Source: a virus
Length of the DNA stretch: 22,066 bases
Direction: 5' to 3' (one strand)
IMG/VR virus record: IMGVR_UViG_3300021091_003680
Location: 1-22,066 of that record
The position numbers and the translations under genes were made by a program. Every line of letters starts with the position of its first letter. Within the stretch, counting starts at the first letter, position 1. The notes under the pieces were generated by a model that made no database searches, was not told the DNA's origin, and saw nothing but the letters and a program-made list of their open reading frames with translations. Shown one piece after another: positions 2 through 21,682 of this stretch.

Positions 2-661
2 GTGACTGTTGATAAAGAAAAAACAACTGTTGTTGATGGAAAAGGTACTGAAGAAGCTATCACAGCTAGAGCTGAAGAAATTAAAAATCAAATTGATAAG
101 GCTCAATCAATGTTTGAAAAAGAAAAATTACAAGAACGTTTAGGTAAATTAATTGGAGGTGTAGCTATTATTAATGTTGGTGGTAATAATGATATTGAAT
201 TAAAAGAATATAAAGATAGAGTTGAAGACGCTTTATTTGCTACTCGAGCTGCTATTGAAGAAGGTGTATTACCAGGTGGAGGAGCAGCTTTATTATATGC
301 TAGAGAAGCTATAAGTGAGTCAATGGATGATAGTGTTGACTTTAATATTGGTAAAAAAATCGTTTATTCTGCCTTATCTTCACCATTCATTCAAATACTA
401 GATAATGCTGGGTTAAATAATCCAACTTGGTATATGTATGAATTAGGCAAGTTAAAAGGTACTTGGTATGGATATGATTTAAAATCAGAAACATTTGTTA
501 ACATGGAAGATGAAGGTATTTTAGATCCAACTAAGGTGACTCGATTAGCAGTTGAAAATGCAGCTGCTGTAGCTGGTACTATATTAACAACTGAAACTGT
601 TGTCCATGAAGAACCAACAGATAAGAAAGAAAATAATAATGGACCTGAATTAGGATTTTAA
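2..661 (+). CDS. groEL: GroEL-type chaperonin, C-terminal part (5' end outside window)
   Basis: This is the C-terminal ~219 residues of a Hsp60/GroEL chaperonin, the ATP-driven ring that folds cytoplasmic proteins. The reading frame is open at the left edge, so the GTG at position 2 is probably an internal Val codon and not the start. The visible part matches the end of the apical domain, the second intermediate segment and the second equatorial segment of GroEL. It contains KLQERLGKLIGGVA, the VEDALFATRAAIEEG stretch carrying the aspartate equivalent to catalytic Asp398 of E. coli GroEL, the PGGGAALL nucleotide-binding turn, and the late ILDPTKVTR motif. The C-terminus ends in an Asn/Glu-rich tail and lacks the Gly-Gly-Met repeat of many bacterial GroELs. 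No groES is visible. Phage GroELs are known from several large phages, where they are thought to fold phage proteins. Family assignment is secure; phage origin follows from the neighbours. Confidence 0.95.
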   Translation: MTVDKEKTTVVDGKGTEEAITARAEEIKNQIDKAQSMFEKEKLQERLGKLIGGVAIINVGGNNDIELKEYKDRVEDALFATRAAIEEGVLPGGGAALLYAREAISESMDDSVDFNIGKKIVYSALSSPFIQILDNAGLNNPTWYMYELGKLKGTWYGYDLKSETFVNMEDEGILDPTKVTRLAVENAAAVAGTILTTETVVHEEPTDKKENNNGPELGF

Positions 662-864: not shown

Positions 865-963
865 TGACCCTTAGCTCAGTAGGTTAGAGCAAGCTTCAGT
901 ACTCAAAGTAAATCAACTATGGGGAAAAAAGTAGTGCCACTGGTTCGATTCCAGTAGGGTCAG
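865..963 (+). tRNA. Atypical tRNA or tRNA-like gene, isotype not assignable
   Basis: The outer parts of a tRNA are perfect. The acceptor stem TGACCCT/AGGGTCA (865-871, 956-962) has seven Watson-Crick pairs, the D stem GCTC/GAGC is 874-877 with 887-890, and the T stem ACTGG/CCAGT is 939-943 with 951-955 around loop TTCGATT. Between D and T arms lie 48 bases (891-938) instead of the usual 23 or so, or up to about 40 in tRNAs with long variable arms. I found no 5-bp anticodon stem with a 7-base loop in this stretch. It contains an A-rich run after GGGG and a weak ACTA/TAGT stem (916-919 with 932-935). The U1-A72 pair with discriminator G resembles bacterial tRNA-Gln, but no UUG anticodon is present. 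It may be a decayed tRNA, a tRNA with an insertion, or a tRNA-like RNA with another role. No CCA is encoded. Confidence 0.6.
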
Positions 964-967
964 CTAA

Positions 968-1874: not shown

Positions 1875-2280
1875 GGGGGTGTTTGGTATTGATTCATAAG
1901 TGAAGGTACCACTACATGCAGGCGTTTGGATATGTCGCCTTTAAACAAATTTTCAAACAATAAATGACGAAATGTCAACAATGACCTATGATGACCTAGT
2001 GGCATTTGTAGGTGCTGAAGAGTATGCATATGCAGCTTAGTAAGCTTGGGGCAGCTGATAGCCTTGCAACAGAACAGCAGTGAGTCATACACTATAGAGA
2101 TGGCATTCAGACACATATTGTGAGCTGTAAGTTTCCTAGTTTAGAGTAAAATTAGGTGGTGGAAGGCGCGCTAACCAAAACTAGTGGCCCCAATTACTGA
2201 TCAGCTTGCAGATCTAAGCATGTGATACGTTAGTGTTATTGTTCCTTGTGAAGACACCGGTTCGAGTCCGGTCACCTCCA
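1875..2280 (+). ncRNA. ssrA: tmRNA (transfer-messenger RNA)
   Basis: A complete 406-nt tmRNA, which rescues stalled ribosomes by acting as a tRNA and then as a short mRNA encoding a degradation tag. The acceptor stem GGGGGTG (1875-1881) pairs with CACCTCC (2273-2279, one G-U pair). The T arm ACCGG/CCGGT with TTCGAGT loop is 2256-2272. Near the 5' end the pieces TTTGGTATTGATT and ACATGC align with conserved blocks of bacterial tmRNAs. Pseudoknot 1 can be drawn from GGCG (1921-1924) with CGCC (1936-1939) and GTTTG with CAAAC just before the tag frame. After the tag, CTAGTTT (2136-2142) pairs with AAACTAG (2178-2184) in the region where further pseudoknots occur. The discriminator is A2280 and CCA is not encoded. 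tmRNA genes are known from some phages; no smpB is visible here, so host SmpB is presumably used. Confidence 0.94.
1966..2040 (+). other. tmRNA tag reading frame (about 24 residues)
   Basis: Within the tmRNA, an open frame ends at TAG (2038-2040, followed by TAA) and gives a C-terminus of Glu-Glu-Tyr-Ala-Tyr-Ala-Ala. This matches the ALAA/AYAA-type ending recognised by ClpXP-like proteases. The likely resume codon is GAC at 1966, because U1961 and A1962 fall at -5 and -4, as the conserved U85-A86 do before the resume codon of E. coli tmRNA, and because it follows pseudoknot 1 at a normal distance. The tag would then start Asp-Glu-Met-Ser-Thr and be 24 residues long, against about 8-12 in most bacteria. 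The exact resume point is an inference. Confidence 0.8.
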
Positions 2281-2305
2281 CATATTTATTGGTAAATTAA
2301 AAAGT

Positions 2306-6412: not shown

Positions 6413-6820
6413 ATGAATTTATTTGATTGGTTAAATGAGATAACATATCATAAACGTCCATGGAGTATATTTATGGATGAAGATAAGGCTGAGTTTAATA
6501 CTTATATGATTCATCGTTTTATTAGTATGAACCCATCTTATATTGATGCTGTTAATTTAATTCAATATTATCCAGATTGTCCTAAAAGAAAGGTATATCA
6601 ATTTTATTGTGAGTTATTACCTAAACAAAAAGCATTCTTTAGATATATTAAAGCAAGTGCTAAGGATGATCTAGAAACAATTAAGGCTATATCAGAATAC
6701 TATCAATGTAGTACTCGTGAGGCAAAAGAATATATTAATATAGTAGATGTAAATAATATTAAAAATGTGCTTAACTTGGGACAGTCAGGTACAAACAAAA
6801 AAAGGAGAAAAAAATCATGA
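6413..6820 (+). CDS. 62: Clamp-loader small subunit (T4 gp62-like)
   Basis: A 135-residue protein resembling the short gp62 homologues of T4-like cyanophages, the non-ATPase subunit that bridges the clamp-loader ring. Recognisable features are the N-terminal LFDWLNEI start, a middle AVNLIQYYP segment, PKQKAFFRYIK, the conserved helix with ISEYYQCSTREAKEYINI, and a Lys/Arg-rich end (KKRRKKS). The family is poorly conserved, so assignment depends on this order of short motifs and on the nearby gp44-like gene. T4 gp62 is longer (187 residues). The C-terminal lysine codons create a Shine-Dalgarno sequence for the next gene, and the two overlap by four bases. Confidence 0.8.
   Translation: MNLFDWLNEITYHKRPWSIFMDEDKAEFNTYMIHRFISMNPSYIDAVNLIQYYPDCPKRKVYQFYCELLPKQKAFFRYIKASAKDDLETIKAISEYYQCSTREAKEYINIVDVNNIKNVLNLGQSGTNKKRRKKS
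6802..6807 (+). promoter_or_regulatory. Clear Shine-Dalgarno site for the gene at 6817
   Basis: AAGGAG is placed nine bases before the ATG at 6817. It is the only strong Shine-Dalgarno sequence I noticed in the window; nearly all other starts lack one. It lies within the Lys/Arg codons at the end of the gp62-like gene, so it may be incidental, but its spacing is ideal. Confidence 0.5.
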
Positions 6821-7131
6821 TTACATTTATTTTAGGTGCTTTGGCTGCAGTTGTGGTTGGGGTACTGGGTTGGCTTTCAGTTAGTGTTATTGGATCACTA
6901 GAGAGAGTTAAGTCATTAGAACAAGAAAATCAAGTTCAATGGAGAGAGATTGAAGAACGTTACAATTCAATTGAACGTAAATTAGATGAAGCCATAGACA
7001 TTGTCAATCGTAGAATTGATGATAACTATAGTTACACTGATTCACGATTTGATAAGTTCAATAACCATATTGAACGCGATTATGTTTCAAAAGTAGATAA
7101 AGCTAGTAATACAATCAGTTATAATAATTAA
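6817..7131 (+). CDS. Membrane-anchored coiled-coil protein
   Basis: A 104-residue protein with an N-terminal membrane helix at about residues 3-26 (Ala/Val/Gly-rich) followed by a long charged helix (about residues 29-75) with heptad-like hydrophobic spacing, and a polar tail. It starts inside the gp62-like stop (ATGA) and has a good Shine-Dalgarno sequence. No family is recognised. It could tether replication components to the membrane or be a structural accessory, but the sequence does not decide. Confidence 0.72.
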   Translation: MITFILGALAAVVVGVLGWLSVSVIGSLERVKSLEQENQVQWREIEERYNSIERKLDEAIDIVNRRIDDNYSYTDSRFDKFNNHIERDYVSKVDKASNTISYNN

Positions 7132-7174
7132 TTAATCACTTGGCTGTCCCAATTAAGTCATTTAAATTTATTAT

Positions 7175-8709: not shown

Positions 8710-10140
8710 ATGAAAGAAGGTTACATTCCACAATCACAACGTAAAAAAATCTTGTTATTATGTGATGATATTAGAATGACATCTGGTATATCCACAATGG
8801 CTAGAGAAATTGTTATTGGTACAGCTCATCATTTTAATTGGGTAAATATAGGTGGAGCTATTAAACATCCAGATCAAGGTAAACGATTTGATATTAATGC
8901 TGACACTAATAAACATGCTGGTATAGAAGATGCTAGTGTATTTCTATATCCAATTGATGGTTATGGTAGTCCTGAGTTAATTAGACAAATGATTAATATT
9001 GAAAAACCAGATGTATTAATGATGTTCACTGATCCAAGATACTGGATTTGGTTATTTCAAATAGAGAATGAAATTAGAAAAAAAATACCAATTATATATC
9101 TTAATATTTGGGATGATTATCCAGCTCCATTATATAATGAAGCATATTATGAGTCATGTGATGGGTTAATGGCTATATCAAAACAAACACTTAATATAAA
9201 TAAATTAGTATTAGGTGATAAAGCTAAAAATAAAGTATTAAGTTATGTACCTCATGGTATAAATGATAAAGTGTTTTATCCAATTAATGATGAAACTAAA
9301 TTAAATGAAATTAGAAAAAAACTATTTGGTAATAAACAATATGATTTTGTTTTAATGTTTAATTCTAGAAATATTAGACGTAAACAAATACCTGATACAA
9401 TGGCTTCATTTAGATTGTTTCTAGATAAATTACCTAAAGATAAAGCTGATAAATGTGCTTTAATATTACACACACAACCAATTGATGATAATGGAACTGA
9501 TTTATATGCTGTTAGAGACATATTATTTACTGACAGTCAATGTAATCAAATTTATTTTTCAGACTCAAAAATAACATCTCAAGAGTTAAATTTAATATAT
9601 AATATTAGTAATGCTTGTATATTAATAAGTTCAAATGAAGGTTGGGGATTAAGTCTAACAGAGGCAATGATGTGTGGAAAAATGATTATTGCTAATGTGA
9701 CCGGTGGTATGCAAGACCAAATGAGATTTATAGATGAAAATAATAAATGGATTGATTTTGATGTTGATTTTTGTTCTAACCATTTTGGTAAGTATAAAAC
9801 ATGTGGTGAATGGGCTATACCAGTATTCCCAAGTAATATAAGTATTCAAGGTTCAGTTCCAACTCCTTATATATATGATGATAGAGCTAATTTTAGAGAA
9901 GTAGCTGATGCTATTATGAAAATATATGAAATGGGAAATGAAGAGTGTAATCGCAGAGGTAAATTAGCTCATAAGTGGGTTACATCAGATGAATCTATGA
10001 TGACAGCTGAAAATATGAGTAAAAATGTTATAAAACATATTAATGAAGTTTTGGCTAATTGGAAACCAAGACATAAATTTGAGTTAATTAAAATTAAGCC
10101 ATTTAAAAGAAAACATATTCGTCATAAATTAGTTTATTAA
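8710..10140 (+). CDS. Glycosyltransferase, GT4-like (GT-B fold)
   Basis: A 476-residue GT-B glycosyltransferase, transferring a sugar from a nucleotide donor with retention of configuration as is usual for GT4. The N-terminal domain starts with a Rossmann-like strand (KILLLCDD) and a glycine turn, TSGISTMAREI. The C-terminal domain carries the EX7E motif, SNEGWGLSLTEAM (Glu310 and Glu318), followed by a GGMQDQM loop. The donor and acceptor are unknown. It is the first gene of the sugar cassette, starting 20 bases after the DNA-binding gene, and is followed by a second GT4-like protein sharing the SG...AR(E/D)IV motif near its N-terminus. The tail is basic (KIKPFKRKHIRHK). Confidence 0.9.
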   Translation: MKEGYIPQSQRKKILLLCDDIRMTSGISTMAREIVIGTAHHFNWVNIGGAIKHPDQGKRFDINADTNKHAGIEDASVFLYPIDGYGSPELIRQMINIEKPDVLMMFTDPRYWIWLFQIENEIRKKIPIIYLNIWDDYPAPLYNEAYYESCDGLMAISKQTLNINKLVLGDKAKNKVLSYVPHGINDKVFYPINDETKLNEIRKKLFGNKQYDFVLMFNSRNIRRKQIPDTMASFRLFLDKLPKDKADKCALILHTQPIDDNGTDLYAVRDILFTDSQCNQIYFSDSKITSQELNLIYNISNACILISSNEGWGLSLTEAMMCGKMIIANVTGGMQDQMRFIDENNKWIDFDVDFCSNHFGKYKTCGEWAIPVFPSNISIQGSVPTPYIYDDRANFREVADAIMKIYEMGNEECNRRGKLAHKWVTSDESMMTAENMSKNVIKHINEVLANWKPRHKFELIKIKPFKRKHIRHKLVY

Positions 10141-10145
10141 TAATT

Positions 10146-11477
10146 ATGAAACCATTAATTGTAATTAGTTGCCCTATTGAAACAATGTCAGGATATGGAG
10201 CTAGAGCTAGAGATATAGTTAAAGCACTCCTAAAATATGATAAATATGATATTAAAATTATTTCTCAACGTTGGGGAAATACATCTTGGAATGCTTTAAA
10301 TTTAAACAATTCAGAAGATAAAAGATTATATGATTTAATTTGGAGACAACCTCAATTACCAAAACAACCTGACATTTGGATCCAAATTACAGTACCAAAT
10401 GAATTTCAAGCTGTAGGAAAATATAATATTGGTATTACAGCAGGTATTGAAACAACAGCATGTGATCCAAGTTGGGTTGAAGGCATTAATAGAATGAATT
10501 TAACTTTAGTATCATCTGAACATGCTAAACATGTATTTAAAACAAATACATTTGAAAAAAGAAATAAAAAAAATAATCAACTTGAAGGAACAGTTAAATT
10601 AGAAAAGCCAGTTGAAGTTTTATTTGAAGGAGCTGATTTAAATACTTATTTTTATATTAATGACAATGATTTAGAAGAGACAGAATTAGTATTATCATTA
10701 GATGAAATAGAAGAAGATTTTTGTTTTTTATTTGTTGGTCATTGGTTACAAGGAAATTTAGGTGAAGACAGAAAAAATGTAGGTTATATGATTAAAGCAT
10801 TCTTAGAAACATTTAAGAATAAAAAAAATAATAAACCAGCTTTAATTTTAAAAACATCTCAAGTAACTAATTCAATAATGGATAGAGATGAGATACTTAA
10901 GAAAATAGAAGCTATTAGAAACACAGTTAAAGGTGATTTACCAAACATTTATTTATTACATGGTGATTTAGAAAATAAAGATATGAATGATTTATATAAT
11001 CATGATAAAGTGAAAGCAATGGTGTCATTAACTAAAGGTGAAGGATTTGGAAGACCATTACTTGAATTTAGTTTATCTAAAAAACCTATTATAGCTAGTA
11101 ATTGGAGTGGACATTTAGATTTTTTAAATCCAGAATATAATACATTAGTAGGAGGAACATTAACTAATGTTCATTCATCAGCTCAAGCTAAAAATATGAT
11201 ATTAGCTGAATCACAATGGTTTACTCCTAATGATGGAGAAGTAGCTGATGCTTTTAAATCTGTTTATAATGATTATAATAAACATTTAGAGAAATCTAAA
11301 CGTCAAGCTTATTTTGCTAAAACTAATTTTTCATTTGATAAAATGGCTGAGATATTGGATAATATTTTAGAGTCAAAAGTACCTAAACAAGTAGAGCTTA
11401 AATTACCAACATTAAAAAAAGTAAACAATACTGATATACCTAAACTTAATTTGCCTAAACTTAAAAAAATAGAATAA
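10146..11477 (+). CDS. Glycosyltransferase, GT4-like, with repeated basic tail
   Basis: A 443-residue GT-B glycosyltransferase. The N-terminus has SCPIETMSGYGARARDIV, and the C-terminal domain has LTKGEGFGRPLLEFSL with the EX7E pair at Glu299 and Glu307 and then the WSGHLDF loop. The middle contains a likely linker (about 135-190). The last 30 residues are an unusual tail with two copies of a short LPxLKK unit (LPTLKKVN and LPKLKKIE) separated by a few residues, rich in Lys and Pro, which might bind a partner or membrane. It starts five bases after the previous gene and its stop overlaps the next start by one base. It is diverged from the upstream GT4-like protein but related in plan. Confidence 0.88.
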   Translation: MKPLIVISCPIETMSGYGARARDIVKALLKYDKYDIKIISQRWGNTSWNALNLNNSEDKRLYDLIWRQPQLPKQPDIWIQITVPNEFQAVGKYNIGITAGIETTACDPSWVEGINRMNLTLVSSEHAKHVFKTNTFEKRNKKNNQLEGTVKLEKPVEVLFEGADLNTYFYINDNDLEETELVLSLDEIEEDFCFLFVGHWLQGNLGEDRKNVGYMIKAFLETFKNKKNNKPALILKTSQVTNSIMDRDEILKKIEAIRNTVKGDLPNIYLLHGDLENKDMNDLYNHDKVKAMVSLTKGEGFGRPLLEFSLSKKPIIASNWSGHLDFLNPEYNTLVGGTLTNVHSSAQAKNMILAESQWFTPNDGEVADAFKSVYNDYNKHLEKSKRQAYFAKTNFSFDKMAEILDNILESKVPKQVELKLPTLKKVNNTDIPKLNLPKLKKIE

Positions 11478-11905
11478 TGAATGATAGATTAGTGGTATGT
11501 CCACATTGCGGATCAGATGCCTGTTATGAGCATAAACAACAAGGTATATTAATATGGAGTTGCATGAATTGTGGATTTACATCAAATGAATTAATGATTG
11601 AAGGTAGTGAGTTAGTAATTCAAACAGAGGAAGTAATGCCTGAGTTATATAAAGATATTAAATTTATAGATGATAAAAAACAAGTTTGGTATCCAACAGT
11701 TATTAATATACAAGATAAAGGTACTGTGTTTATTAATGGTACTACTAAAGATAATTGGGGATGGGCAGGTATTAAAGCTGTAGAAACAACAGATGAAGAA
11801 AAAGAAAAACTTAAAGGAGCTACACATAAATCAGATTCTAAAACATTAAAAACATTCACTAAAGATCAGTTTGATGAGGCCTGTCATTATATTGGCTTAA
11901 TTTAA
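11477..11905 (+). CDS. Zinc-ribbon protein of unknown function
   Basis: A 142-residue protein with an N-terminal zinc ribbon: CPHCGSDACYEH at residues 8-19, and CMNCGF at about 29-34, giving two CxxC knuckles. The remainder (about 45-142) is a mixed domain with several Trp and Gly residues (YPTVINIQDKGTVFING, NWGWAGIKA) and a helical end, and is not recognised. It starts at the stop of the GT4-like gene (TAATG), so it is probably cotranscribed with the sugar genes, but it does not look like a sugar enzyme. Similar two-part phage proteins exist without known function. Confidence 0.75.
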   Translation: MNDRLVVCPHCGSDACYEHKQQGILIWSCMNCGFTSNELMIEGSELVIQTEEVMPELYKDIKFIDDKKQVWYPTVINIQDKGTVFINGTTKDNWGWAGIKAVETTDEEKEKLKGATHKSDSKTLKTFTKDQFDEACHYIGLI

Positions 11906-11914
11906 ATTTAATTT

Positions 11915-12541
11915 ATGACTACTATTAGTTTTGCTATTACAGCTTGTAATGAGCATATTGAATTAGAACATCTATTAGACCAATTAGTAACTATTATTAA
12001 ACCACAGGATGAAATAATAGTTCAATTAGATAATACATCTACAGATGAGGTTAAAAAAGTAGCTAATAAATATAATATTGGAGGTAAATTTGATTATCAT
12101 AGAATATATTTTGGATTAAATGGAGATTTTGCTTCATTTAAAAATAATTTAAAAAATCATTGCACACGTGATTGGGTATTTTTTATTGATGCTGATGAAT
12201 ACTTAAGTGATGGATTATCTAGTAATATCCACAGTGTGTTAGATATGAATAAAGGTTTAGTTGATGTTATATCTTTACCTCGTATTAATACAGTTGAAGG
12301 ATTGACTCGTAATCATATTGATAAGTGGAAATGGTTTGTAGATGATAATGATTGGATCAATTATCCAGATTATCAAACTCGTATATGTGTTAATAAAAAG
12401 GATATTCAATGGAAAAATAAGGTACATGAGCGTTTACAAGGATGGAAAACAATAGCTAATTTACCTCAAGGATATGATTTAATACATCCTAAAACAATTG
12501 ATAGACAAGAAAAACAAAATAATTTTTATGCCACAATTTAA
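11915..12541 (+). CDS. Glycosyltransferase, GT2-like
   Basis: A 208-residue GT-A glycosyltransferase. The N-terminal ITACNEHIELEHLLDQL is the typical GT2 start, the acidic strand QLDNTSTDEV follows, and the DxD metal site is IDADEYL (Asp92, Asp94). VHERLQGW near residue 175 is a common acceptor-side motif in this family. It is somewhat shorter than full GT2 enzymes and probably acts alone on a small acceptor or growing glycan. The nucleotide-sugar dehydrogenase start lies 14 bases inside its end. Confidence 0.87.
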   Translation: MTTISFAITACNEHIELEHLLDQLVTIIKPQDEIIVQLDNTSTDEVKKVANKYNIGGKFDYHRIYFGLNGDFASFKNNLKNHCTRDWVFFIDADEYLSDGLSSNIHSVLDMNKGLVDVISLPRINTVEGLTRNHIDKWKWFVDDNDWINYPDYQTRICVNKKDIQWKNKVHERLQGWKTIANLPQGYDLIHPKTIDRQEKQNNFYATI

Positions 12542-13373
12542 AGTAGGGATTATTGGAAATGGTTTTGTAGGTGAATCTCAAGCATATGCTTTTTCATCTA
12601 TGGCTGATGTTAAAATATTTGATATTAATCCTATAAAATCAACCCATACATTATTAGAAGTATTAACTCAAGATTTTATATTTGTGTGTTTACCTACACC
12701 AATGAAAGAAAGTGGTGAACAAGATATTTCATATATTGAAAATTTCTTTAATAATATAGGTTTATATAACACAAATGCTATTTTTATTTTAAAATCAACT
12801 ATATTACCAGGCACAACAAAATCATTAATTAATAAACATAACTTTAATATAGTGTTTTGTCCTGAGTTTTTAACTGAAAAAACTGCTAAACTAGATATGT
12901 TAACTCAATCTAGAATAGTGATTGGAGGTGATAATCAACACACAGAAAAAGTATTAGAATTGTTTAAAGTTCGATTTGGGCAAAAACATTATATATTAAC
13001 TGATACAACAACAGCAGAGTTTATTAAATATATGGCTAACACATTTTTAGCTGTTAAAGTATCTGTTGTAAATGAATTTTATAGAATATCTGAAATATTA
13101 GGTGCTGATTGGGATAAAGCATTAGAAGGATTTGTATCTGATCCTCGTATTGGTAATTCACATACTAATGTTCCTGGCCATGATGGTAAATTAGGGTTTG
13201 GTGGAACATGTTTTCCTAAAGATATTAATGCTTTAATCATAATGAGTAAAGAATTAGGTGTTAATATGAATACACTTGAAGCTGCTTGGAAAACAAATTT
13301 AGAAGTTAGACCAGAACAAGATTGGAAAACCTTAGTTGGTAGAGCAATTACTCCAACACCAACTCCTCATTAA
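12528..13373 (+). CDS. UDP-glucose/GDP-mannose 6-dehydrogenase family, short form
   Basis: A 281-residue NAD-dependent sugar dehydrogenase that should oxidise C6 of a nucleotide sugar to a uronate. The NAD site is IIGNGFVG (Gly10, Gly12, Gly15), followed by CLPTPMKESG, CPEFLTEKTA (Glu113), the EFIKYMANTFLAVKVSVVNE helix, and the catalytic loop GFGGTCFPKD with Cys228, Lys231 and Asp232. The usual C-terminal UDP-binding domain (about 100 residues) is missing: the protein ends in TPTPTPH shortly after the catalytic domain, against about 390-440 residues in most members. I chose the ATG at 12528 because an upstream TTG at 12498 would add a poor extension. The short form may use another way of holding the nucleotide. 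Confidence 0.9.
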   Translation: MPQFKVGIIGNGFVGESQAYAFSSMADVKIFDINPIKSTHTLLEVLTQDFIFVCLPTPMKESGEQDISYIENFFNNIGLYNTNAIFILKSTILPGTTKSLINKHNFNIVFCPEFLTEKTAKLDMLTQSRIVIGGDNQHTEKVLELFKVRFGQKHYILTDTTTAEFIKYMANTFLAVKVSVVNEFYRISEILGADWDKALEGFVSDPRIGNSHTNVPGHDGKLGFGGTCFPKDINALIIMSKELGVNMNTLEAAWKTNLEVRPEQDWKTLVGRAITPTPTPH

Positions 13374-13374
13374 A

Positions 13375-13854
13375 ATGATATTAAAAAAAATAGATAATAT
13401 AGAGATTAGACCAATGGTGTTAAGTGATCTTAATGATGTTAAAATAATTAGAGATCAATGTCTAACTTTTATACATGATGATAACAGTTATAGTTTAAAT
13501 GAAACCATAAAATGGTTTTTAAATAATTTACCTCATTATCTAAGTGTAATTTATAATAATAAATTAGTAGGTTATTTTAGGTTAAGTAAAATAACATCTA
13601 AATCATGTTATGTAGGAATGGATTTACATTCTAATTATAGAGGTAAAGGTATAGCTTTAAAAACATATAACATTGTTATAAATGATTTAATTAATTATGG
13701 TATTAATACATTTTATTTAAATGTTTTAAATAATAATACTCATGCTATTAGATTGTATGAATATATTGGTTTTAAAATAATAACAGATGAAGGTATTATT
13801 ATTAGAAAAAATGGAGATACTGTTTCAAATTTATTAATGATCAAAACAATATGA
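13375..13854 (+). CDS. GNAT-family N-acetyltransferase
   Basis: A 159-residue acetyltransferase of the GNAT fold. It has IRPMVLSDLNDVKIIRD at the N-terminus, a GYFRL strand, the acetyl-CoA pyrophosphate-binding segment DLHSNYRGKGIALKTY (Arg89, Gly90, Gly92), and NNTHAIRLYEYIGF near the end. The RimJ/RimL-like motif order fits either a protein or an amino-sugar acetyltransferase. In this cassette, next to a DegT-type aminotransferase and a sugar dehydrogenase, acetylation of an amino sugar is the best guess, but not proven. The start at 13375 lies two bases after the dehydrogenase stop; an extension to 13336 would overlap it. Confidence 0.87.
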   Translation: MILKKIDNIEIRPMVLSDLNDVKIIRDQCLTFIHDDNSYSLNETIKWFLNNLPHYLSVIYNNKLVGYFRLSKITSKSCYVGMDLHSNYRGKGIALKTYNIVINDLINYGINTFYLNVLNNNTHAIRLYEYIGFKIITDEGIIIRKNGDTVSNLLMIKTI

Positions 13855-14648
13855 AAATTGCTATTATAATAGGAGGTTGGTATTTTCCAAAACATCTATA
13901 TGAAAATGCTAAACAAATAATTCCTCCTCAACATATTACTTTAGATTTCTTTGTAGTATCTCACCGTAACCCAGAGCATATTGATATTAAAGGGGAGATG
14001 TTACCTAGAATAAAAGATAATAACAAATATGATTTAGAATTATTTAATAATATAATCATTTATTCTGAGTTAGAACAATTAGGTTATAAAGTAAATGAAA
14101 CTGAAAATGAAATAGGTGATTATTTTTTCTTCAACCAGTGGACTAAACTATATGATTATAGAGAATATGATTATATAGTCTTTATGCATGATGATAATTA
14201 TATATTACCTTCATTTAAAGAAATTTTAATTGATATTTTTGAGAAAAAAATAAATTTCTATCAAAAGAAAAATCAGTGGATATCTGTTCCTGCTGTTGAT
14301 TTTGATTATATAGCTAATAGTGCTGTGGGGAATAGGAATACAGCTAGAGGATCATTTAGTATATGGTCTAAAAAACTATTAGATAAAATAGAAGGTAGTT
14401 TTCCTATGAATAATGTTACTTTAAAAAGAAATGGTTTAACTGATACTCCTAAAAATCATCTTGATTTAGATTGGAATATTGTTGGGACTAATTTTCAAGA
14501 ATTTATACAAAATAACTTTATTGGCACTTCTTTTAGATTATCACCTTATTATAGAGTAAGTAAATATATGATTGAGGCTGAAAGAGGATTAATATCTAAC
14601 ACACAAGTTACTTTAAATATGTTTGATGGACTGAAAAAGTTTACTTAA
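13851..14648 (+). CDS. Putative glycosyltransferase with HDD site
   Basis: A 265-residue protein with a GT-A-like pattern: an N-terminal strand (IAIIIGGWYFPKHLYENAK), a VVSHRNPE segment, and a metal-like site in DYIVFMHDDNYILP (His113, Asp114, Asp115). A C-terminal half holds an aromatic stretch and RGSFSIWSKKLL. The IIxGWxF N-terminus and MHDD motif are shared with the protein at 18952-19650, indicating a paralogous pair within this cassette. I do not recognise a classical family, so glycosyltransferase is inferred from motif and context. It overlaps the GNAT gene by four bases (ATGA). Confidence 0.68.
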   Translation: MKIAIIIGGWYFPKHLYENAKQIIPPQHITLDFFVVSHRNPEHIDIKGEMLPRIKDNNKYDLELFNNIIIYSELEQLGYKVNETENEIGDYFFFNQWTKLYDYREYDYIVFMHDDNYILPSFKEILIDIFEKKINFYQKKNQWISVPAVDFDYIANSAVGNRNTARGSFSIWSKKLLDKIEGSFPMNNVTLKRNGLTDTPKNHLDLDWNIVGTNFQEFIQNNFIGTSFRLSPYYRVSKYMIEAERGLISNTQVTLNMFDGLKKFT

Positions 14649-14657
14649 ATTTATAAT

Positions 14658-15410
14658 ATGAAAAATGTTTTGTTTTTTACTTCACTTAAGGCTAATGATC
14701 CTAATTTAGATTCTTATAAAAAATGGTCATTATTAACTTGGCAATATTATGCTAAAAAACATAATTTAGAAGTATTCATATTAGAAGAACCTTTAATTGA
14801 TACTGAAATAATGAGACCAACTTGGCAACGTTGGTATGTTTATGATTTATTAGAAGCAAGTGGTATTACAGATGTTGGTCGTGTAGCTATGATTGATATT
14901 GACACTATGGTTAGATGGGACACACCTAATATATTTGAAATAGCAGGTGATAACTATGTTGGTGTGATAGATGATTTAAGTATAGAATGGATTTGGAATA
15001 GTATTCAAGGTTATAAACATTTTTTTCCAGATGTTAAATTAGATTGGTATAATTATATCAATAATGGTATATTAGTTTTACCTAGTACTGGTAAAGTATT
15101 TTGTGATAAGGTAAAAGCATTCTATGATAAAAATCAAGATGAATTAAGAGACTTACAACATCGCACTTTAAAGAAAGGCACTGATCAAACACCTATTAAT
15201 TATTTAGCCAGACAACATTTTGGAGATGATATTAAAACATTACCAAAAATATTTAATATGACTCACATGTATAAAACAGATGCTTTTATAGATGGTATAT
15301 TCATTAAATGTAGTTACATTTGGCATTATAATGGAATACCTAGAGAACAAAGAAATGGGTTGATGAAACAAACTTGGGATTTAATTAAACAAAACTATGA
15401 TATCATTTAA
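14658..15410 (+). CDS. Putative glycosyltransferase, GT8-like
   Basis: A 250-residue protein with the plan of a nucleotide-diphospho-sugar transferase. It has an N-terminal LFFTSLKANDPNLDSYKKW region, then RWYVYDLLEASG, the metal site in VAMIDIDTMVRWD (Asp80, Asp82), a NNGILVL strand that usually lies beside the donor pocket, and a KGTDQTPINYL stretch containing an acidic DQ motif common in GT8-type and related enzymes. These support a metal-dependent glycosyltransferase; donor and acceptor are unknown. The methyltransferase start lies 14 bases inside its end. Confidence 0.8.
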   Translation: MKNVLFFTSLKANDPNLDSYKKWSLLTWQYYAKKHNLEVFILEEPLIDTEIMRPTWQRWYVYDLLEASGITDVGRVAMIDIDTMVRWDTPNIFEIAGDNYVGVIDDLSIEWIWNSIQGYKHFFPDVKLDWYNYINNGILVLPSTGKVFCDKVKAFYDKNQDELRDLQHRTLKKGTDQTPINYLARQHFGDDIKTLPKIFNMTHMYKTDAFIDGIFIKCSYIWHYNGIPREQRNGLMKQTWDLIKQNYDII

Positions 15411-15969
15411 TAATATACCTGATAAAACTGAGTTTAAAGATACTACTAGTCTTAAATTTAAACAAGATGTAATTGAGTTTTTTAAAGATAAAAATTTAGA
15501 TACTTGTTTAGAAATAGGTACTAACCATGGATGGACAACTGGAATATTAAGTGGTTTATTTAAAAGTGTTTACACAATTGATCATAAACTTAGTAATATT
15601 GATAAAGCTAAAACTAATAACACTAATAAAACTAATATAACATTTATAACAGCAGATGCTTACAATCCAGCTACTTATTTAAATATGCCTAAGATGGATG
15701 TTGTGTTTATTGATTGTATACACACTTATGATGGTGTGATACATGATATTAATACTGCTTTGTCTTTAATGGATGTAGAAAAAGGTATGTATTTTATTTT
15801 TGATGATTATGGTCATCCACAATCAACAGAAGTTAAAGATGCTATCTTAAAAGTGATTGAAGAAGGATTAAAAGTAGAAAAATATATAGGGCAAGAAACA
15901 GGTTACCAATACAACCCAACATCAATATTAATTGATAATGAGGGTATAATATTAAGTTATGGAAAGTAA
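15397..15969 (+). CDS. SAM-dependent methyltransferase (Methyltransf_24-like)
   Basis: A 190-residue class I methyltransferase. Motif I is CLEIGTNHGWTTG (residues 38-49), the acidic ribose-binding residue follows in TIDHKL, and MDVVFIDCIHTYDGV (100-114) with FDDYGH (135-140) matches small phage and bacterial methyltransferases found in sugar-modification clusters. It would methylate an oxygen or amine, perhaps on a sugar. It overlaps both neighbours (14 bases before, 11 after), consistent with coordinated translation within the cassette. The product is not a DNA methyltransferase: no target-recognition domain or DPPY-type motif is seen. Confidence 0.86.
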   Translation: MISFNNIPDKTEFKDTTSLKFKQDVIEFFKDKNLDTCLEIGTNHGWTTGILSGLFKSVYTIDHKLSNIDKAKTNNTNKTNITFITADAYNPATYLNMPKMDVVFIDCIHTYDGVIHDINTALSLMDVEKGMYFIFDDYGHPQSTEVKDAILKVIEEGLKVEKYIGQETGYQYNPTSILIDNEGIILSYGK

Positions 15970-16888
15970 AATAGCAATTGGATGTTTAGTCCAATGGTAT
16001 GAAGCTGATATAGTAGAAGAATATTTTAATTCATTATATTCAGCTATAAAAAATTATGAAGGTGAAGTTGTAGTTGATATTTGGGTCTCAACAAATGAGG
16101 ATTTAGAAAAGTGTATTGATGCTGAAACTAAAAATCAATGTATTGAAACAATTAAAGCAACAGCTAAAGGATTTCCATTAATTATAAGTAATAAACTAGT
16201 CACTATAGCTGATTATAGAAGAGAATTTAATAAAAAATATTGTAATGAAGTAGATATATTAGTTTGGGGTGAAACAGATATGTTAGTACCTAAACAAATG
16301 TTTCAAGCAATAAATAATCTTCATAAATCAGTACCTGATAAAAAATATTTAGCTACATTTGCTATTTGTAAAATGTGGGATGTATCTTGGGCTCCACTTG
16401 AACATCCTGAATTTACAAATAAACCATTTATAGAAAATGACTATACTAACTGGTGGTCACTTAAATACACTATGAGTGAAGATGAGATGAACTCATTTAA
16501 TGATAAAATAGAAGAATTAGATGTTAGTATAATTCAACCTAATAAATATAATGGATGTGGTTTAGTTATATCATCTGAAATAATTAAATCAGGAGTTAAT
16601 ATACCTGAATCAGTATTCTTTGTTCATGAAGATACTGCTTTTATGCTTATGGTTAATAATAAGCTAGGTAATGTACCTCAATATCATTTTAAAAATATAT
16701 TAATAGTACATAATAGAAACCATCCTAAAAAAAGAATGTATGTTGCTAATGAGACAGGTGATACAATGAACCAAAAACGTAGGAGTAATGACTGGTATAT
16801 TAAAGCAAATAAGTACTCTGAGGAAAATTGTTATAATATATTTAATCCTAATTATAAATCTAAAACTTGGGCTGACGTATGGAAATAG
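15959..16888 (+). CDS. Putative glycosyltransferase, GT-A-like, divergent
   Basis: A 309-residue protein starting IAIGCLVQWYEADIVEEYFNS, a GT-A-like opening. It has a strand VVDIWVSTNEDLE, a VTIADYRREFN helix and DILVWGETDMLVP, where ETD (105-107) takes the place of a DxD metal site. Later segments contain ESVFFVHEDTAFMLM and IVHNRNHP. It probably belongs to a divergent GT-A family; function comes mainly from context. The gene overlaps its neighbours by 11 and 10 bases. Confidence 0.68.
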   Translation: MESKIAIGCLVQWYEADIVEEYFNSLYSAIKNYEGEVVVDIWVSTNEDLEKCIDAETKNQCIETIKATAKGFPLIISNKLVTIADYRREFNKKYCNEVDILVWGETDMLVPKQMFQAINNLHKSVPDKKYLATFAICKMWDVSWAPLEHPEFTNKPFIENDYTNWWSLKYTMSEDEMNSFNDKIEELDVSIIQPNKYNGCGLVISSEIIKSGVNIPESVFFVHEDTAFMLMVNNKLGNVPQYHFKNILIVHNRNHPKKRMYVANETGDTMNQKRRSNDWYIKANKYSEENCYNIFNPNYKSKTWADVWK

Positions 16889-17793
16889 CTTTCTTTACTG
16901 AGATGGGATTTGAGGGTAAAGTACCTCGTATTCATGATAATATGAGAACTGAGTTTGCTTGGATGGTGGCTTTAAATGCTGATCATTGTAATATAAAGCA
17001 AATTCCATCTAAAAAATATGATTTAGGTATTGTAATTATACCTAAAAAAAATCCTGAGTTTGATATTAACTCATTAAAGTCATATTGTGATAAAGTAGCT
17101 GTAATGCAAGAAGGACCTAATTGGTATTGGCAAGATTATGATTTAGCTAAACAAATATGGTACTTTAATACTTTAACTTCAGCTAATATTATTTTTACTC
17201 ATAATGAAGCTGATAAAAAATATTATCAAGGATTAACAGCACATTCAGATGTTAGAGTATTATCTTCTCTAATGATTGAAGATGCTATAGGTGAGTTGGA
17301 ACAAGTTGAAAGACAAGGTGTTATTATAGGAGGTAATTTTGTCTCATGGTATGGTGGGTTTGATTCATTTATTATAGCTCAAGAGTTAGATGGAGGTAAA
17401 GTGACAGCACCATCAATGGGTAGAAAACAATCAGGTGAAGAACAATTATTAAATCACTTACCTTATTTAAATTGGAAACAATGGATATATGAATTAAATA
17501 AATTTAAATATGGAGTACATTTAATGAGAACTCATGCTGCTGGTACATTTGCTCTTAACTGTGCTTATTTAGGTATACCTTGTATTGGTTACTATGGGTT
17601 AGATACTCAAGAAGTATGTCATCCTAATTTAACAGTTGATGTAGGAGATTTGGTTAAGGCAAGAAAATTAATTAAATTATTAAGAGATGACTATAGATTT
17701 TACAATTGGCAAAGTCAATTAGCTAAAGAAAACTATAATAAATTTTATACAGAACAAATATTTAAACAAAAGTTTTATGATACCTTTATTTAA
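16879..17793 (+). CDS. Putative glycosyltransferase, GT-B-like, divergent
   Basis: A 304-residue protein. Its N-terminal part (MEIAFFTEMG, VPRIHDNMRTEFAW) and the C-terminal stretch with LMRTHAAGTFALNCAYLGIPCIGY, followed by TVDVGDLVKARKLI, resemble the donor-binding half of GT-B enzymes, where a small-residue loop and a late acidic residue hold the nucleotide sugar. A middle VMQEGPNWYW segment is characteristic but unassigned. The classical EX7E motif is absent, so this is not a standard GT4. Assignment rests on fold-like pattern and position. The aminotransferase start lies 17 bases inside its end. Confidence 0.65.
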   Translation: MEIAFFTEMGFEGKVPRIHDNMRTEFAWMVALNADHCNIKQIPSKKYDLGIVIIPKKNPEFDINSLKSYCDKVAVMQEGPNWYWQDYDLAKQIWYFNTLTSANIIFTHNEADKKYYQGLTAHSDVRVLSSLMIEDAIGELEQVERQGVIIGGNFVSWYGGFDSFIIAQELDGGKVTAPSMGRKQSGEEQLLNHLPYLNWKQWIYELNKFKYGVHLMRTHAAGTFALNCAYLGIPCIGYYGLDTQEVCHPNLTVDVGDLVKARKLIKLLRDDYRFYNWQSQLAKENYNKFYTEQIFKQKFYDTFI

Positions 17794-18952
17794 AGTACAC
17801 ATGGCTAAAACAGCCCCTGAAAAAGTTACCCAGGTACTTAAAAGTGGTTTTATTGGTCAGGGTCCAGTGGTTGATGAGTTTGAGGAACATTTAAAAAAAT
17901 ACTTCAGACATGATAAAATCTTAACAGTTAATGCTGCTACATCAGCAGAACATTTAGCATTACATATGCTTAAAAAACCATCTATTCATAATGTTGGGGT
18001 TGATGGATATGCTATGTATGAGTCTAAATGGCCAGGAATAGAAGATGGAGATGAGGTATTAACCACAGCTTTAACTTGTACAGCTACTAATTGGCCTATA
18101 TTAGCTAATAATTTTAAAATTAAATGGGTTGATATTGATCCTGAGACATTAAATATGGATCTAGATGATTTAGCTAGAAAAATTACTCCTAAAACTAAAG
18201 TTATATTTGTAGTGCATTGGGGTGGTTATCCAGTTGATTTAGATCGTTTAGTTGAAATACAAACTCATGCTCATAAACTATATGGTTTTAAACCAGCTAT
18301 TATTGAGGATTGTGCTCATGCAATGGGTAGTAAATATAAAGGTAAATTAATTGGTACACATGATAATATTTGTACTTTTAGTTTACAAGCTATTAAACAT
18401 ATTACATCAGGTGATGGTGGTTTATTATTTGTACCACATGATGAATTATATAAAAGAGGTAAGTTATTAAGATGGTATGGAATTGATAGAGAAAGTAATC
18501 GCAAAGATTTTAGATGTGAAGCTAATATTCCAGAATGGGGATTTAAATTTCATATGAATGATATTAATGCTGCTATTGGTTTAGAAAACTTTAAATGTAT
18601 TGATGATATAGTTTCTAAGCATAAAGAAAATGCAGCATATTATGATGAAGCATTAAAAGATGTTCCTGGTCTAACTTTACTTAAGCGTCACAATGATAGA
18701 GAATCAGCATTTTGGATCTATAGTATTCTAGTGGATCGTAAAAATGATTTTCAACGTTATATGGCTGATAAAGGAATTGCCACATCTCAAGTACATGAAC
18801 GTAATGACATTCATAGTTGTGTTAAAGAATATAAATCAATATTACCTAACCTAGATAAGACTGTTAGAAAATTATCTTCACTTCCAGTTGGATGGTGGGT
18901 AACTAAAGAAGATAGAGAATATATTGTTGAATGTATAAAACAAGGATGGTAA
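17777..18952 (+). CDS. DegT/DnrJ/EryC1-type sugar aminotransferase
   Basis: A 391-residue PLP-dependent enzyme that adds an amino group to a keto nucleotide sugar. The N-terminus MIPLFKVHM and FIGQGPVVDEFE are typical of this family. The cofactor region has NAATSAEHLAL, IIEDCAHAMGSKYKG (Asp178, His181), and the Schiff-base lysine in SLQAIKHITSGDGG (Lys207). The length is normal. An insertion of about 20 residues (about 70-90) sits before GDEVLTTALTCTATN. The keto substrate could come from an NDP-sugar dehydratase; the SDR at 19657 is a candidate. It partners naturally with the GNAT gene at 13375. The stop overlaps the next start by one base. Confidence 0.94.
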   Translation: MIPLFKVHMAKTAPEKVTQVLKSGFIGQGPVVDEFEEHLKKYFRHDKILTVNAATSAEHLALHMLKKPSIHNVGVDGYAMYESKWPGIEDGDEVLTTALTCTATNWPILANNFKIKWVDIDPETLNMDLDDLARKITPKTKVIFVVHWGGYPVDLDRLVEIQTHAHKLYGFKPAIIEDCAHAMGSKYKGKLIGTHDNICTFSLQAIKHITSGDGGLLFVPHDELYKRGKLLRWYGIDRESNRKDFRCEANIPEWGFKFHMNDINAAIGLENFKCIDDIVSKHKENAAYYDEALKDVPGLTLLKRHNDRESAFWIYSILVDRKNDFQRYMADKGIATSQVHERNDIHSCVKEYKSILPNLDKTVRKLSSLPVGWWVTKEDREYIVECIKQGW

Positions 18953-19650
18953 TGAATATTCAATTTATAATAGTAGGATGGCATTTTGATAATTTTCCTG
19001 AGTTTATAAATGGATTAAAACAACTTAAAACAGATAATCCTGAAATAGGAATATTTTGGTCATGTCATAAAGAACCTAGTGAGACAGTTAAACAAAATTT
19101 TGATTATAAAGTATTTCCTAATTTAGGATTGGAAGATGGAGCATATCAACAAGCATTAGATTATTTGAATTTAGATGATGATATTATATTATTTTTAATG
19201 CATGATGATATTGTGGTTAAAGATTGGGAGTTTATTAATATATGTTTACAACATTTACAAAATGGTATAATGTTTGTAGGTAATGGAATAAATTATCCAG
19301 CTAATTTTAACCCACAAGAAATAGTTAGAGGAAAAAAATGTATTGATTGGGTTAAAGATGAAGCTAAATATATATTTAATACAGTTGAAACAGTTTTAAC
19401 TATTAGAGAAAGTTTTATATGTACAATAAGAGGTTATCTTAAAGACATATTTGATTTTGAAGTAATTTGGGAAGAACCTCAACCAGATGCTAATGGTAAA
19501 TTTCATATTGGTGGTATAGGTAACTTACAACAAACAATGTTAGGTTATAAAATATATAAAATATTTGGTGCTAATAAAATAGTTTATCTATCTAACACAT
19601 ATCAGGATAGTGAATATTTATATGAATGCGCTAGAGGAAATCAAAAATAA
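18952..19650 (+). CDS. Putative glycosyltransferase with HDD site, paralogue of 13851
   Basis: A 232-residue protein with FIIVGWHFDNFPEFI at the N-terminus and ILFLMHDDIVVKDWEF, giving a His84-Asp85-Asp86 metal-like site. Both features mirror the protein at 13851-14648, so the two are probably related, although the C-terminal parts differ. Glycosyltransferase function is inferred from the HDD motif and cassette context. The start at 18952 overlaps the aminotransferase stop by one base; an in-frame upstream start at 18931 would add seven residues inside that gene and is less likely. Confidence 0.68.
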   Translation: MNIQFIIVGWHFDNFPEFINGLKQLKTDNPEIGIFWSCHKEPSETVKQNFDYKVFPNLGLEDGAYQQALDYLNLDDDIILFLMHDDIVVKDWEFINICLQHLQNGIMFVGNGINYPANFNPQEIVRGKKCIDWVKDEAKYIFNTVETVLTIRESFICTIRGYLKDIFDFEVIWEEPQPDANGKFHIGGIGNLQQTMLGYKIYKIFGANKIVYLSNTYQDSEYLYECARGNQK

Positions 19651-19656
19651 AAATCT

Positions 19657-20502
19657 ATGAGAATATTAGTAACAGGAGGTGCTGGATTTGTAGGTACTAA
19701 TTTAATTAAACAATTATTAGAAGAAGGTCATCAGATAGTATCAATTGATAATTATCACACTGGTTTAAAATCAAACCATCAGAATGGAGCTCAATATATT
19801 GAGTTTGATATTAGAAATATTAATGATTATTCAGCTTGGGGTGAGTTTGATATTGTTTATCATTTAGCAGCCATAGCTAGAATACAACCATCATTTAAAG
19901 AACCATATGATTATTTCACTACTAATGCTAATGCTACATTTAAAGTAGCTAAATATTGTTCTGAAAAGAATATACCATTAGTATTTGCAGGTAGTAGTTC
20001 ACATTGGTCAGGTAAGTTTAAAAATCCTTATACATTTAGTAAAGATGTAAGTGAGGAAATTATTCAATTATTTCAAAAACATTATGGTTTAAAAGCATCT
20101 ATTGCTCGTTTTTATAATGTGTATGGTCCTTACCATTTAAAAGAAGGTGGTTATTGTACTGTGATTGGTAAATGGGAAAAATGTCTTGAAGAATATAAGC
20201 CACTTACAATTTATGGTACTGGTAAGAAACGTAGAGACTTTACTCATATAGATGATATAGTAGGTGCTTTAATATTAATAAATGAAAAACAAGCTTGGGG
20301 ATATACATTTGAATTAGGTAGAGGTAAAAATTACTCTATTAAAGAAATAGCTGAGATGTTCCAAACAGATATAAATTATGAGGATGACAAGCCAGGTGAA
20401 GCTGAAATAACATTATGTACTGATATATTAGCTAAAGAAGTATTAGGGTGGGAAGCTAAAATTAATATTGAAGACTATATTAAAGAATACTTAAATGGGT
20501 AA
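19657..20502 (+). CDS. NAD-dependent sugar epimerase/dehydratase (extended SDR)
   Basis: A 281-residue extended short-chain dehydrogenase of the GalE/RmlB type. The NAD site is TGGAGFVG (residues 6-13) with Asp31 after the second strand. YHLAAIA (68-74), GSSSHWSG with candidate catalytic Ser (112-119), and NPYTFSK giving Tyr125 and Lys129 complete the catalytic set. ARFYNVYGP and the RRDFTHIDDIVGAL block are typical of the substrate-binding half. Epimerase, 4,6-dehydratase or other sugar-nucleotide chemistry cannot be decided from sequence. It is slightly shorter than GalE (about 338). It starts six bases after its neighbour and overlaps the next gene by eight. Confidence 0.93.
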   Translation: MRILVTGGAGFVGTNLIKQLLEEGHQIVSIDNYHTGLKSNHQNGAQYIEFDIRNINDYSAWGEFDIVYHLAAIARIQPSFKEPYDYFTTNANATFKVAKYCSEKNIPLVFAGSSSHWSGKFKNPYTFSKDVSEEIIQLFQKHYGLKASIARFYNVYGPYHLKEGGYCTVIGKWEKCLEEYKPLTIYGTGKKRRDFTHIDDIVGALILINEKQAWGYTFELGRGKNYSIKEIAEMFQTDINYEDDKPGEAEITLCTDILAKEVLGWEAKINIEDYIKEYLNG

Positions 20503-21682
20503 AATAACATTTGTTCTACCTAGTAGAAATAATTTAGAATTTCTTCAATTAGCATATAAATCAATTTGTAATTTAGAAACTAAACATGAGATATTAATTC
20601 TAGATGATGCTAGTGTAGATGGGACTCAAGATTGGATTAAGTCACTTAAGGATGATAATTTAATTATATATCACAATCCAGGACCAGAACGTGTTGGTAT
20701 TGTAGGTATGTTTGATAAAGGTATTGAGATGGCTAGAACAGAAATCATATTTGCATTCCATGCTGATATGATAGCATCTCCTAATTTAGATAAAAATATA
20801 CTTAAATATCTTAAACCAGGTGTAGTTGTTAGTGCTACTAGAATTGAACCACCACTTCACCCTCCAGGTCCAGAAAAAATAATTATGGATTGGGGTAATG
20901 AAGTAGAAGAGTTTAATTACAATGATGCTAAACCTAAATTCATAGAACTAGAGCAGTTAAATAAAGATAAGTATACTGAAGGTATATTTGCACCTTGGTG
21001 TATGTATAAATCAGATTACTTAGCTATAGGAGGACATGATGAATTATTTGCTCCTCAATCAAAAGAAGATAGTGATTTATTTAATCGTTTTGTTTTAAAA
21101 GGATATAAAGTAATTCAATCATGGGATGGTTTAGTCTATCATTTCACTAGCCGTGGTAGTAGATTTAATAAACATGCTGGTGGTAGTGCAGGTAAGAATA
21201 GTGAAGAGTGGCTTTACACTACAAATAAGAATTCTAGAAATTTTATTCGTAAGTGGGGACATTTTGTTAAACATGATGCATTTATGAAACCAGTTATACC
21301 TCATAAGTATAATGTTGGATTTGTAGTTCATAATTGTAATTTAGAAGTAATATCTATTTTAGAACCATGGTGTGATACATTATACACTGATGATGAAATG
21401 GGTGTTTTAGAAGCTACTTATTATGATTTAGAGCAAAAACATACTAAAATTGATCTTAAAAGTAAATTTAAAGTAATAAAACACTCAGTACCAGATAATG
21501 ATATTGTAATTGAATTTGATGCTAAACAATTAACTCAAGAGTCTTTTAAATTAATAACTCAATTAACTGAAATTATAGGTGGGTCAGGTGAATTAGGTGA
21601 ATTTGAATTAGATATATTTAAAATATCTATATATGCCATGACCACTTATGAGCATAGTCTTATTCATATTTATAATAAATAA
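20495..21682 (+). CDS. Glycosyltransferase, GT2-like, with C-terminal extension
   Basis: A 395-residue GT-A enzyme. It has a clear GT2 start (ITFVLPSRNNLEFLQLAYKS), ILILDDASVDGTQDW (Asp37-Asp38), and the metal site FAFHADMIA with His89-Ala-Asp91 in place of DxD. The acceptor side has FAPWCMYKSDYLAIGGHDE and KEDSDLFNRF (an ED motif). About 150 residues after the catalytic domain (about 245-395) form an extra unassigned region, with VGFVVHNCNLEVI and an acidic end. The extension could bind the acceptor. It is the last recognisable sugar gene of the cassette in the window. Confidence 0.9.
   Translation: MGKITFVLPSRNNLEFLQLAYKSICNLETKHEILILDDASVDGTQDWIKSLKDDNLIIYHNPGPERVGIVGMFDKGIEMARTEIIFAFHADMIASPNLDKNILKYLKPGVVVSATRIEPPLHPPGPEKIIMDWGNEVEEFNYNDAKPKFIELEQLNKDKYTEGIFAPWCMYKSDYLAIGGHDELFAPQSKEDSDLFNRFVLKGYKVIQSWDGLVYHFTSRGSRFNKHAGGSAGKNSEEWLYTTNKNSRNFIRKWGHFVKHDAFMKPVIPHKYNVGFVVHNCNLEVISILEPWCDTLYTDDEMGVLEATYYDLEQKHTKIDLKSKFKVIKHSVPDNDIVIEFDAKQLTQESFKLITQLTEIIGGSGELGEFELDIFKISIYAMTTYEHSLIHIYNK

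What the first reader, a model, noticed from the sequence alone, without database searches (positions are those of the whole stretch)
1875..2280. Phage-borne tmRNA with a long, AYAA-ended tag
The sequence folds as a tmRNA with acceptor and T arms and a pseudoknot before the tag. The tag frame gives about 24 residues ending Glu-Glu-Tyr-Ala-Tyr-Ala-Ala, while most bacterial tags are 8-12 residues and end in ALAA-type sequences. A phage-encoded tmRNA with an extended tag could rescue ribosomes stalled on degraded host mRNA, redirect tagged peptides to different proteases, or replace a host tmRNA that no longer works during infection. tmRNAs in phages have been reported, but this tag form looks distinct.
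Basis: partly seen in the sequence, partly recalled or inferred. Interest (0 to 1): 0.8.

Follow-up and report, generated by a model that had tools for sequence, protein, structure and literature searches.

The report
Phage tmRNA with long, swappable tag
This virus of bacteria carries its own copy of a ribosome-rescue RNA that would add a 24-residue destruction tag instead of the 9-residue tag of its likely hosts, and about a hundred related viral sequences keep such long tags and appear to trade them like cassettes, so phages may be rewriting how the infected cell disposes of unfinished proteins.

Summary
Window 1875-2281 (+) is a one-piece tmRNA (RF00023 59.3 bits, E 3.8e-21; ARAGORN agrees). 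Two tag-blind scans of viral contigs gave 100 scorable relatives (78 distinct), all with 23-27-codon tag frames. In the first family, A at -4 before the upstream resume codon is invariant (55/55; 34/49 at ARAGORN's site), PK1 stem 1 covaries, and the extra codons show coding selection (41% of codon differences synonymous, against 13% and 9% in the other frames). Resume codon: GAC 1966; tag: DEMSTMTYDDLVAFVGAEEYAYAA. Sampled Flavobacteriales tmRNAs encode 9-aa tags (G..[YF]ALAA). The AYAA end is a minor variant. New here: tags behave as cassettes: near-identical tmRNA bodies carry unrelated tags, and diverged bodies carry the same tag. No phage SmpB was found, so host SmpB is implied. The extension's function is untested; I think it is a second protease or adaptor recognition element in front of the usual C-terminal degron. 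Phage tmRNAs and extended (Mycoplasma) tags are known; I did not find this exchangeable phage tag family described. New variant of a known kind.

The parts
1875..2281 (+). one-piece tmRNA gene (ssrA); acceptor 5' strand GGGGGTG 1875-1881, 3' strand CACCTCC 2273-2279, discriminator A 2280; CCA not encoded
   Evidence: ARAGORN, RF00023 59.3 bits, acceptor pairing with G3-U70
1920..1940 (+). pseudoknot 1 stem 1: AGGCG 1920-1924 pairs with CGCCT 1936-1940
   Evidence: sequence; 9 distinct stem forms in the family, all 5 pairs complementary, 4 of 5 pairs varying on both sides
1960..1965 (+). resume-setting context AUAAAU (U at -5, A at -4)
   Evidence: A at -4 in 55 of 55 distinct relatives; same UAANN context before the host resume codon; A86 is essential in E. 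coli (PMC2481249)
1966..1968 (+). resume codon GAC (Asp)
   Evidence: Rfam alignment; GAC in 56 of 77 relatives
1966..2037 (+). 24-codon tag frame DEMSTMTYDDLVAFVGAEEYAYAA
   Evidence: coding statistics
1966..2013 (+). phage-specific extension of 16 codons (DEMSTMTYDDLVAFVG), conserved at amino-acid level and exchanged between tmRNA bodies
2014..2037 (+). C-terminal degron-like part AEEYAYAA, which ARAGORN calls as the whole tag
   Evidence: alternative resume context not conserved
2038..2043 (+). double stop TAG TAA closing the tag
   Evidence: sequence

Best explanation
The phage makes its own alanine-chargeable tmRNA, which works with the host's SmpB to rescue ribosomes stalled on broken or non-stop mRNA. 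The ribosome resumes at GAC 1966 and adds (Ala-)DEMSTMTYDDLVAFVGAEEYAYAA. The last residues act as an ssrA-type C-terminal degron for a host ClpXP-like protease. The 16-codon extension is a second, selected recognition element (for a host protease such as Lon, or for an adaptor) that changes how fast or by which protease tagged proteins are removed during infection. Phages exchange the tag-coding cassette between tmRNA bodies, presumably to match the proteolysis machinery of different hosts. Shown: the RNA, the resume site, the long conserved tag, the cassette exchange, no detectable phage SmpB. Inferred: charging, tagging, degradation, and the role of the extension.
For: tmRNA identity. Acceptor stem complete and third pair G-U in 59 of 59 relatives, the alanine identity pair. 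Resume context and A-4 (PMC2481249). PK1 stem covariation. Tag-blind recruitment gives only long tags. Amino-acid-level selection on the extension. Flavobacteriales tags are 9 aa. C-termini stay degron-like: ALAA, AVAA, AYAA or AIAA in 70 of 78 distinct tags. Body 93% identical (ungapped) but tag unrelated, L171 versus L172; the same tag on bodies only 54% identical, L160 versus L191. No SmpB in 49 records, about ten of them 120-183 kb. Precedent for an extended tag read by Lon: Mycoplasma/Mesoplasma (PMC9382460; PMC3985003).
Against: No expression, tagging or degradation data. Protease partner unknown; no residue-level match to a known degron was demonstrated. The extension showed no excess amphipathic periodicity. 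A ClpP-like gene lies near the tmRNA in only 5 of 14 large relatives. The isolate relative immuto lacks a tmRNA at the equivalent place and the tag elsewhere, so the gene is dispensable in some related phages.
Confidence: 0.55

Rival explanations
1. Ordinary short tag: translation resumes at GCT 2014 as ARAGORN predicts, giving AEEYAYAA; the upstream open frame is incidental.
For: ARAGORN's default call; GTAGGT before GCT has U at -5 and A at -4 in the window.
Against: A at -4 is lost in 15 of 49 distinct relatives there; the site lies about 60 nt past the usual place after PK1; the upstream codons evolve as coding sequence; ARAGORN itself calls the long tag in close relatives.
Confidence: 0.04
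2. Lon switch as in Mycoplasma: the extension is mainly a Lon degron, used because the phage alters or blocks ClpXP.
For: Extended Mycoplasma tags are read by Lon; Lon favours hydrophobic-rich motifs (PMC11986505); the extension holds F/Y, L, M, F, V.
Against: Most phage tags keep ALAA/AVAA ends, so ClpXP recognition is probably not lost; no sequence homology to the Mycoplasma tag was tested; no anti-ClpXP gene was looked for or seen.
Confidence: 0.2
3. Rescue only: the phage needs extra tmRNA for ribosome release when mRNAs are cut; the tag's sequence matters little and its length is neutral.
For: In E. coli, phage plating needs ribosome release rather than proteolysis (PMC2481249).
Against: Amino-acid-level conservation of the extension, constant length of 23-27 codons, and re-use of the same cassettes.
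Confidence: 0.15
4. The extension is an address for a phage-encoded partner (for example the ClpP-like protein near the tmRNA, or an unknown adaptor).
For: ClpP-fold genes 3-4 kb upstream on the same strand in 5 of 14 large relatives, with catalytic Ser and His kept.
Against: 9 of 14 lack it although they carry the same kinds of tag; the window shows no ClpP-like gene in its 22 kb.
Confidence: 0.1
5. Decoy or inhibitor of host trans-translation, as reported for the tRNA-like-domain-only molecule of mycobacteriophage DS6A.
For: Such a phage molecule inhibits tmRNA (PMC4131195; PMC11915505).
Against: Here the full mRNA-like domain, resume context and coding tag are conserved, which a decoy would not need.
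Confidence: 0.04

Closest known systems
Bacterial one-piece tmRNA (Rfam RF00023)
   Same: acceptor stem with G3-U70, T arm, PK1, UAANN resume context, tag frame with stop
   Different: tag of 24 codons; commonest length in 97,179 tmRNAs is 10 aa (PMC11915505) and 9 in sampled Flavobacteriales
Previously reported phage tmRNAs (mycobacteriophages, Bacillus phage G, Cellulophaga phage Calle, Methylophilales phage Melnitz)
   Same: phage-borne, beside tRNA genes in some; Calle_1 also reads as a long tag with a host-like resume context
   Different: phage G tag is 13 aa; Melnitz is two-piece; Calle's tag ends VGV and has another sequence; no reported exchange of tags that I found
Mycoplasma/Mesoplasma extended tmRNA tag read by Lon
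   Same: unusually long tag with hydrophobic and aromatic residues before the C-terminus
   Different: cellular; ends in AFA and its cells lack ClpXP; the phage tags end ALAA, AVAA or AYAA

Membership tests
tmRNA (RF00023) | covariance model match over the whole length | tested here: met
   59.3 bits against gathering 47, model 1-374
tmRNA (RF00023) | tRNA-like domain with alanine identity pair G3-U70 | tested here: met
   7 of 7 acceptor pairs in the window; G-U third pair in 59 of 59 relatives
tmRNA (RF00023) | pseudoknot 1 upstream of the tag | tested here: met
   PK1 stem 1 covaries; stem 2 judged by eye only
tmRNA (RF00023) | tag frame with resume context and stop | tested here: met
tmRNA (RF00023) | alanine charging, SmpB binding, tagging | not testable with these tools
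   no phage SmpB found; would need host SmpB
Mycoplasma-type Lon-directed extended tag | extended tag | tested here: met
   24 aa
Mycoplasma-type Lon-directed extended tag | C-terminus AFA in place of ALAA | tested here: not met
   window AYAA; family mostly ALAA/AVAA
Mycoplasma-type Lon-directed extended tag | degradation by Lon; cell without ClpXP | not testable with these tools
   host of this contig is not known
host ssrA carried by a prophage or at an integration site | same tag as the host ssrA | tested here: not met
   sampled Flavobacteriales tags are 9 aa G..[YF]ALAA; pattern DEMSTMT[FY][DE]D gives 0 matches in genome contigs

The most novel reading that the evidence does not exclude
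Phage tmRNAs carry a modular, recombining set of long degradation tags (at least two unrelated sequence modules on one RNA body), by which phages reprogram the host's protein quality control, each cassette fitting a particular host protease or adaptor.
Probability: 0.35. Interest if true: 0.85.

Novelty: new variant of a known kind. Interest (0 to 1): 0.62.

Why it matters
Trans-translation tags are thought of as short, host-uniform degrons. A large phage family with long, conserved and exchangeable tags would mean that the tag is a trait under selection during infection. It supplies natural degron sequences whose protease specificity can be tested directly, and it gives a concrete handle on why phages carry tmRNA at all, which the literature read here leaves as speculation. 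It also shows that ARAGORN's automatic tag calls can cut phage tags short.

Tried and rejected
Short tag at 2014 (rejected). Free-standing small ORF starting at ATG 1972: rejected because many relatives (AEELSS..., ATRQER...) have no ATG there. Tag copied from a phage protein: no second copy in 16 records searched. Phage-encoded SmpB: none in 49 records. Phage Lon: none in 14. Amphipathic-helix idea: hydrophobic-moment z averages -0.09 over 36 tags, so not supported. Short tag queries by tblastn and tmRNA queries by blastn against the phage collection found no relative; tblastn with 23-25 aa queries is weak, so this is no strong evidence of absence. A mycobacteriophage tag recalled from memory gave no match and four older mycobacteriophage accessions were not held. 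The second tmRNA hit in genome G135 proved to be a host-type GENNYALAA copy.

Full report
What is there. The window is a complete 22,066-base record of an uncultivated virus. It starts inside a GroEL gene (Pfam Cpn60), followed by tRNA genes, the tmRNA at 1875-2281, and genes for a metallophosphatase, a clamp-loader-like AAA protein, a PD-(D/E)XK nuclease and a long run of glycosyltransferases and sugar enzymes. GroEL, the nuclease and the first glycosyltransferases follow the gene order of the isolated Flavobacterium phage immuto (GroEL 52% identical), so the host is probably a member of the Flavobacteriia; this is inference.

The RNA. RF00023 matches the whole gene at 59.3 bits. The acceptor stem pairs fully and its third pair is G-U, as in 59 of 59 relatives where it could be read; this is the alanine identity pair (established knowledge). 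CCA is not encoded (the discriminator is followed by CAT). Pseudoknot 1 stem 1 (AGGCG/CGCCT) exists in 9 different forms among relatives, all complementary.

Where the tag begins. ARAGORN reports AEEYAYAA from 2014. The Rfam alignment instead sets AAUAAAU|GAC opposite the usual resume site. Bacteroidota tmRNAs show UUUAAAC|GGC and similar contexts, and in E. coli the A at -4 (A86) is essential while U at -5 tolerates C (PMC2481249). In the phage family the context before the upstream codon is always [AGU][UC]A-A[AC][CU], with A at -4 in 55 of 55 distinct sequences; before ARAGORN's codon it is A in only 34 of 49. The upstream resume codon sits at gene position 89-98, as in the Flavobacteriales tmRNAs (mostly 93-101), whereas ARAGORN's site in the window is at 140.

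Tag-blind relatives. A pattern for the 3' domain only drew 82 stretches of viral contigs. Seventy-seven sequences, the window included, had enough sequence and an intact frame, and all read 23-27 codons; one further locus, L188, has the same frame but a tag cut short to ...ADYE. A second 3' pattern drew 25 stretches from other tmRNA bodies, all again 23-27 codons. The pooled set used for pairwise comparison holds 100 loci, 78 distinct. Many are near-duplicates from metagenomes, so these numbers are not independent events. By contrast, in a sample of Flavobacteriales genomes (30 best-scoring and 18 weaker hits of a 119-genome survey, plus 5 others), nearly all tags are 9 aa, G[EDN]..[YF]ALAA; the few exceptions in ARAGORN's list look like start miscalls. 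The isolate Cellulophaga phage Calle_1 has a tmRNA whose host-like context CUUUAAAC|GGA opens a frame of about 30 codons ending VAVGV, so long tags are not limited to metagenomic contigs. Bacillus phage G has a 13-aa tag, so not all phage tags are long.

Selection on the extension. Over the 14 codons upstream of ARAGORN's start (40 distinct sequences), mean column entropy by codon position is 0.49, 0.20 and 0.97 (phase permutation p 2.5e-4), and 41% of codon differences are synonymous against 13% and 9% in the other two frames, which also hold stops. The frame was found as an open frame, so its lack of stops is not counted as evidence. The sequence pattern is [ED][LM]S[ST][MFW]T[FY][ED]D[LAV]M[AS]F[VI]GA[DE], then a degron-like end.

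Cassettes. A second, unrelated-looking module (R..RIAEG.AILAS[IL]F or ..GA.IINMAF) occurs on the same kind of body. On a tree of bodies with the tag removed, the second-module tags of L172 and L135 nest inside the clade that holds the window (support 0.993). L171 and L172 are 93% identical (ungapped) outside the tag, while the tags are 52% at nucleotide level and unrelated as peptides, with the change confined to the stretch around the resume and stop codons. Conversely L160 and L191 share an identical tag peptide (93% nucleotides) on bodies 54% identical, and L402 carries the DEMSTM module on the second body type. Exchange of the tag-coding piece by recombination is the simplest reading; no formal breakpoint test was run.

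Partners. No SmpB in 49 records, about ten of them 120-183 kb, and no Lon in 14. Five of 14 encode a ClpP-fold protein 3-4 kb upstream of the tmRNA on the same strand, with the catalytic Ser and His kept and Glu aligned with the Asp. It does not track the tag type, so I do not build on it.

How it most likely works. With host SmpB and AlaRS the RNA rescues stalled ribosomes and adds the 24-aa tag. The end resembles the ssrA degron; the extension is under protein-level selection and must do something as a peptide. The closest tested precedent is the extended Mycoplasma tag, read by Lon. The phage tags differ in mostly keeping ALAA-like ends, so I favour a two-part degron over a full switch. This step is inference.

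Novelty. Phage tmRNAs are known (402 of 18,146 phage genomes in one survey), and extended tags are known in Mycoplasma. The open-access papers searched did not describe a conserved long-tag phage family or tag exchange; subscription papers and the tmRNA database itself could not be searched.

Noticed in passing
window 865-964: tRNA-like gene with a normal acceptor, D and T arm but an odd anticodon arm (ARAGORN 4-base anticodon ctca) and a long variable arm. Relatives L171, L172, L133, L182 and L340 keep the body almost letter for letter while the middle differs (72-100 nt); a decoy or suppressor tRNA-like molecule is possible.
   Followed up: partly
L410 3662-4201, L411 3644-4186, L412 7428-7964, L413 3965-4504, L414 3652-4191: ClpP-fold protein about 3-4 kb upstream of the tmRNA in 5 of 14 large relatives; Ser and His kept, Glu aligned with the catalytic Asp of E. 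coli ClpP.
   Followed up: partly
window 2-661: 3' part of a phage GroEL directly before the tRNA and tmRNA genes; immuto has GroES-GroEL at the same place without tRNA or tmRNA.
   Followed up: partly
L330 1501-1862 (MT732432 43002-43361): Cellulophaga phage Calle_1 tmRNA: tag frame of about 30 codons GNNTNAVNAQIEANMEAVNAILNLEVAVGV ending GV instead of AA.
   Followed up: partly
L376 around 6762-7173 (G135:C1:772761-773172): A Flavobacteriales genome with a second, diverged tmRNA-like copy that still encodes GENNYALAA.
   Followed up: no
window 8710-21682: Long cluster of glycosyltransferases, nucleotide-sugar dehydrogenase, aminotransferase and epimerase genes in a phage.
   Followed up: no
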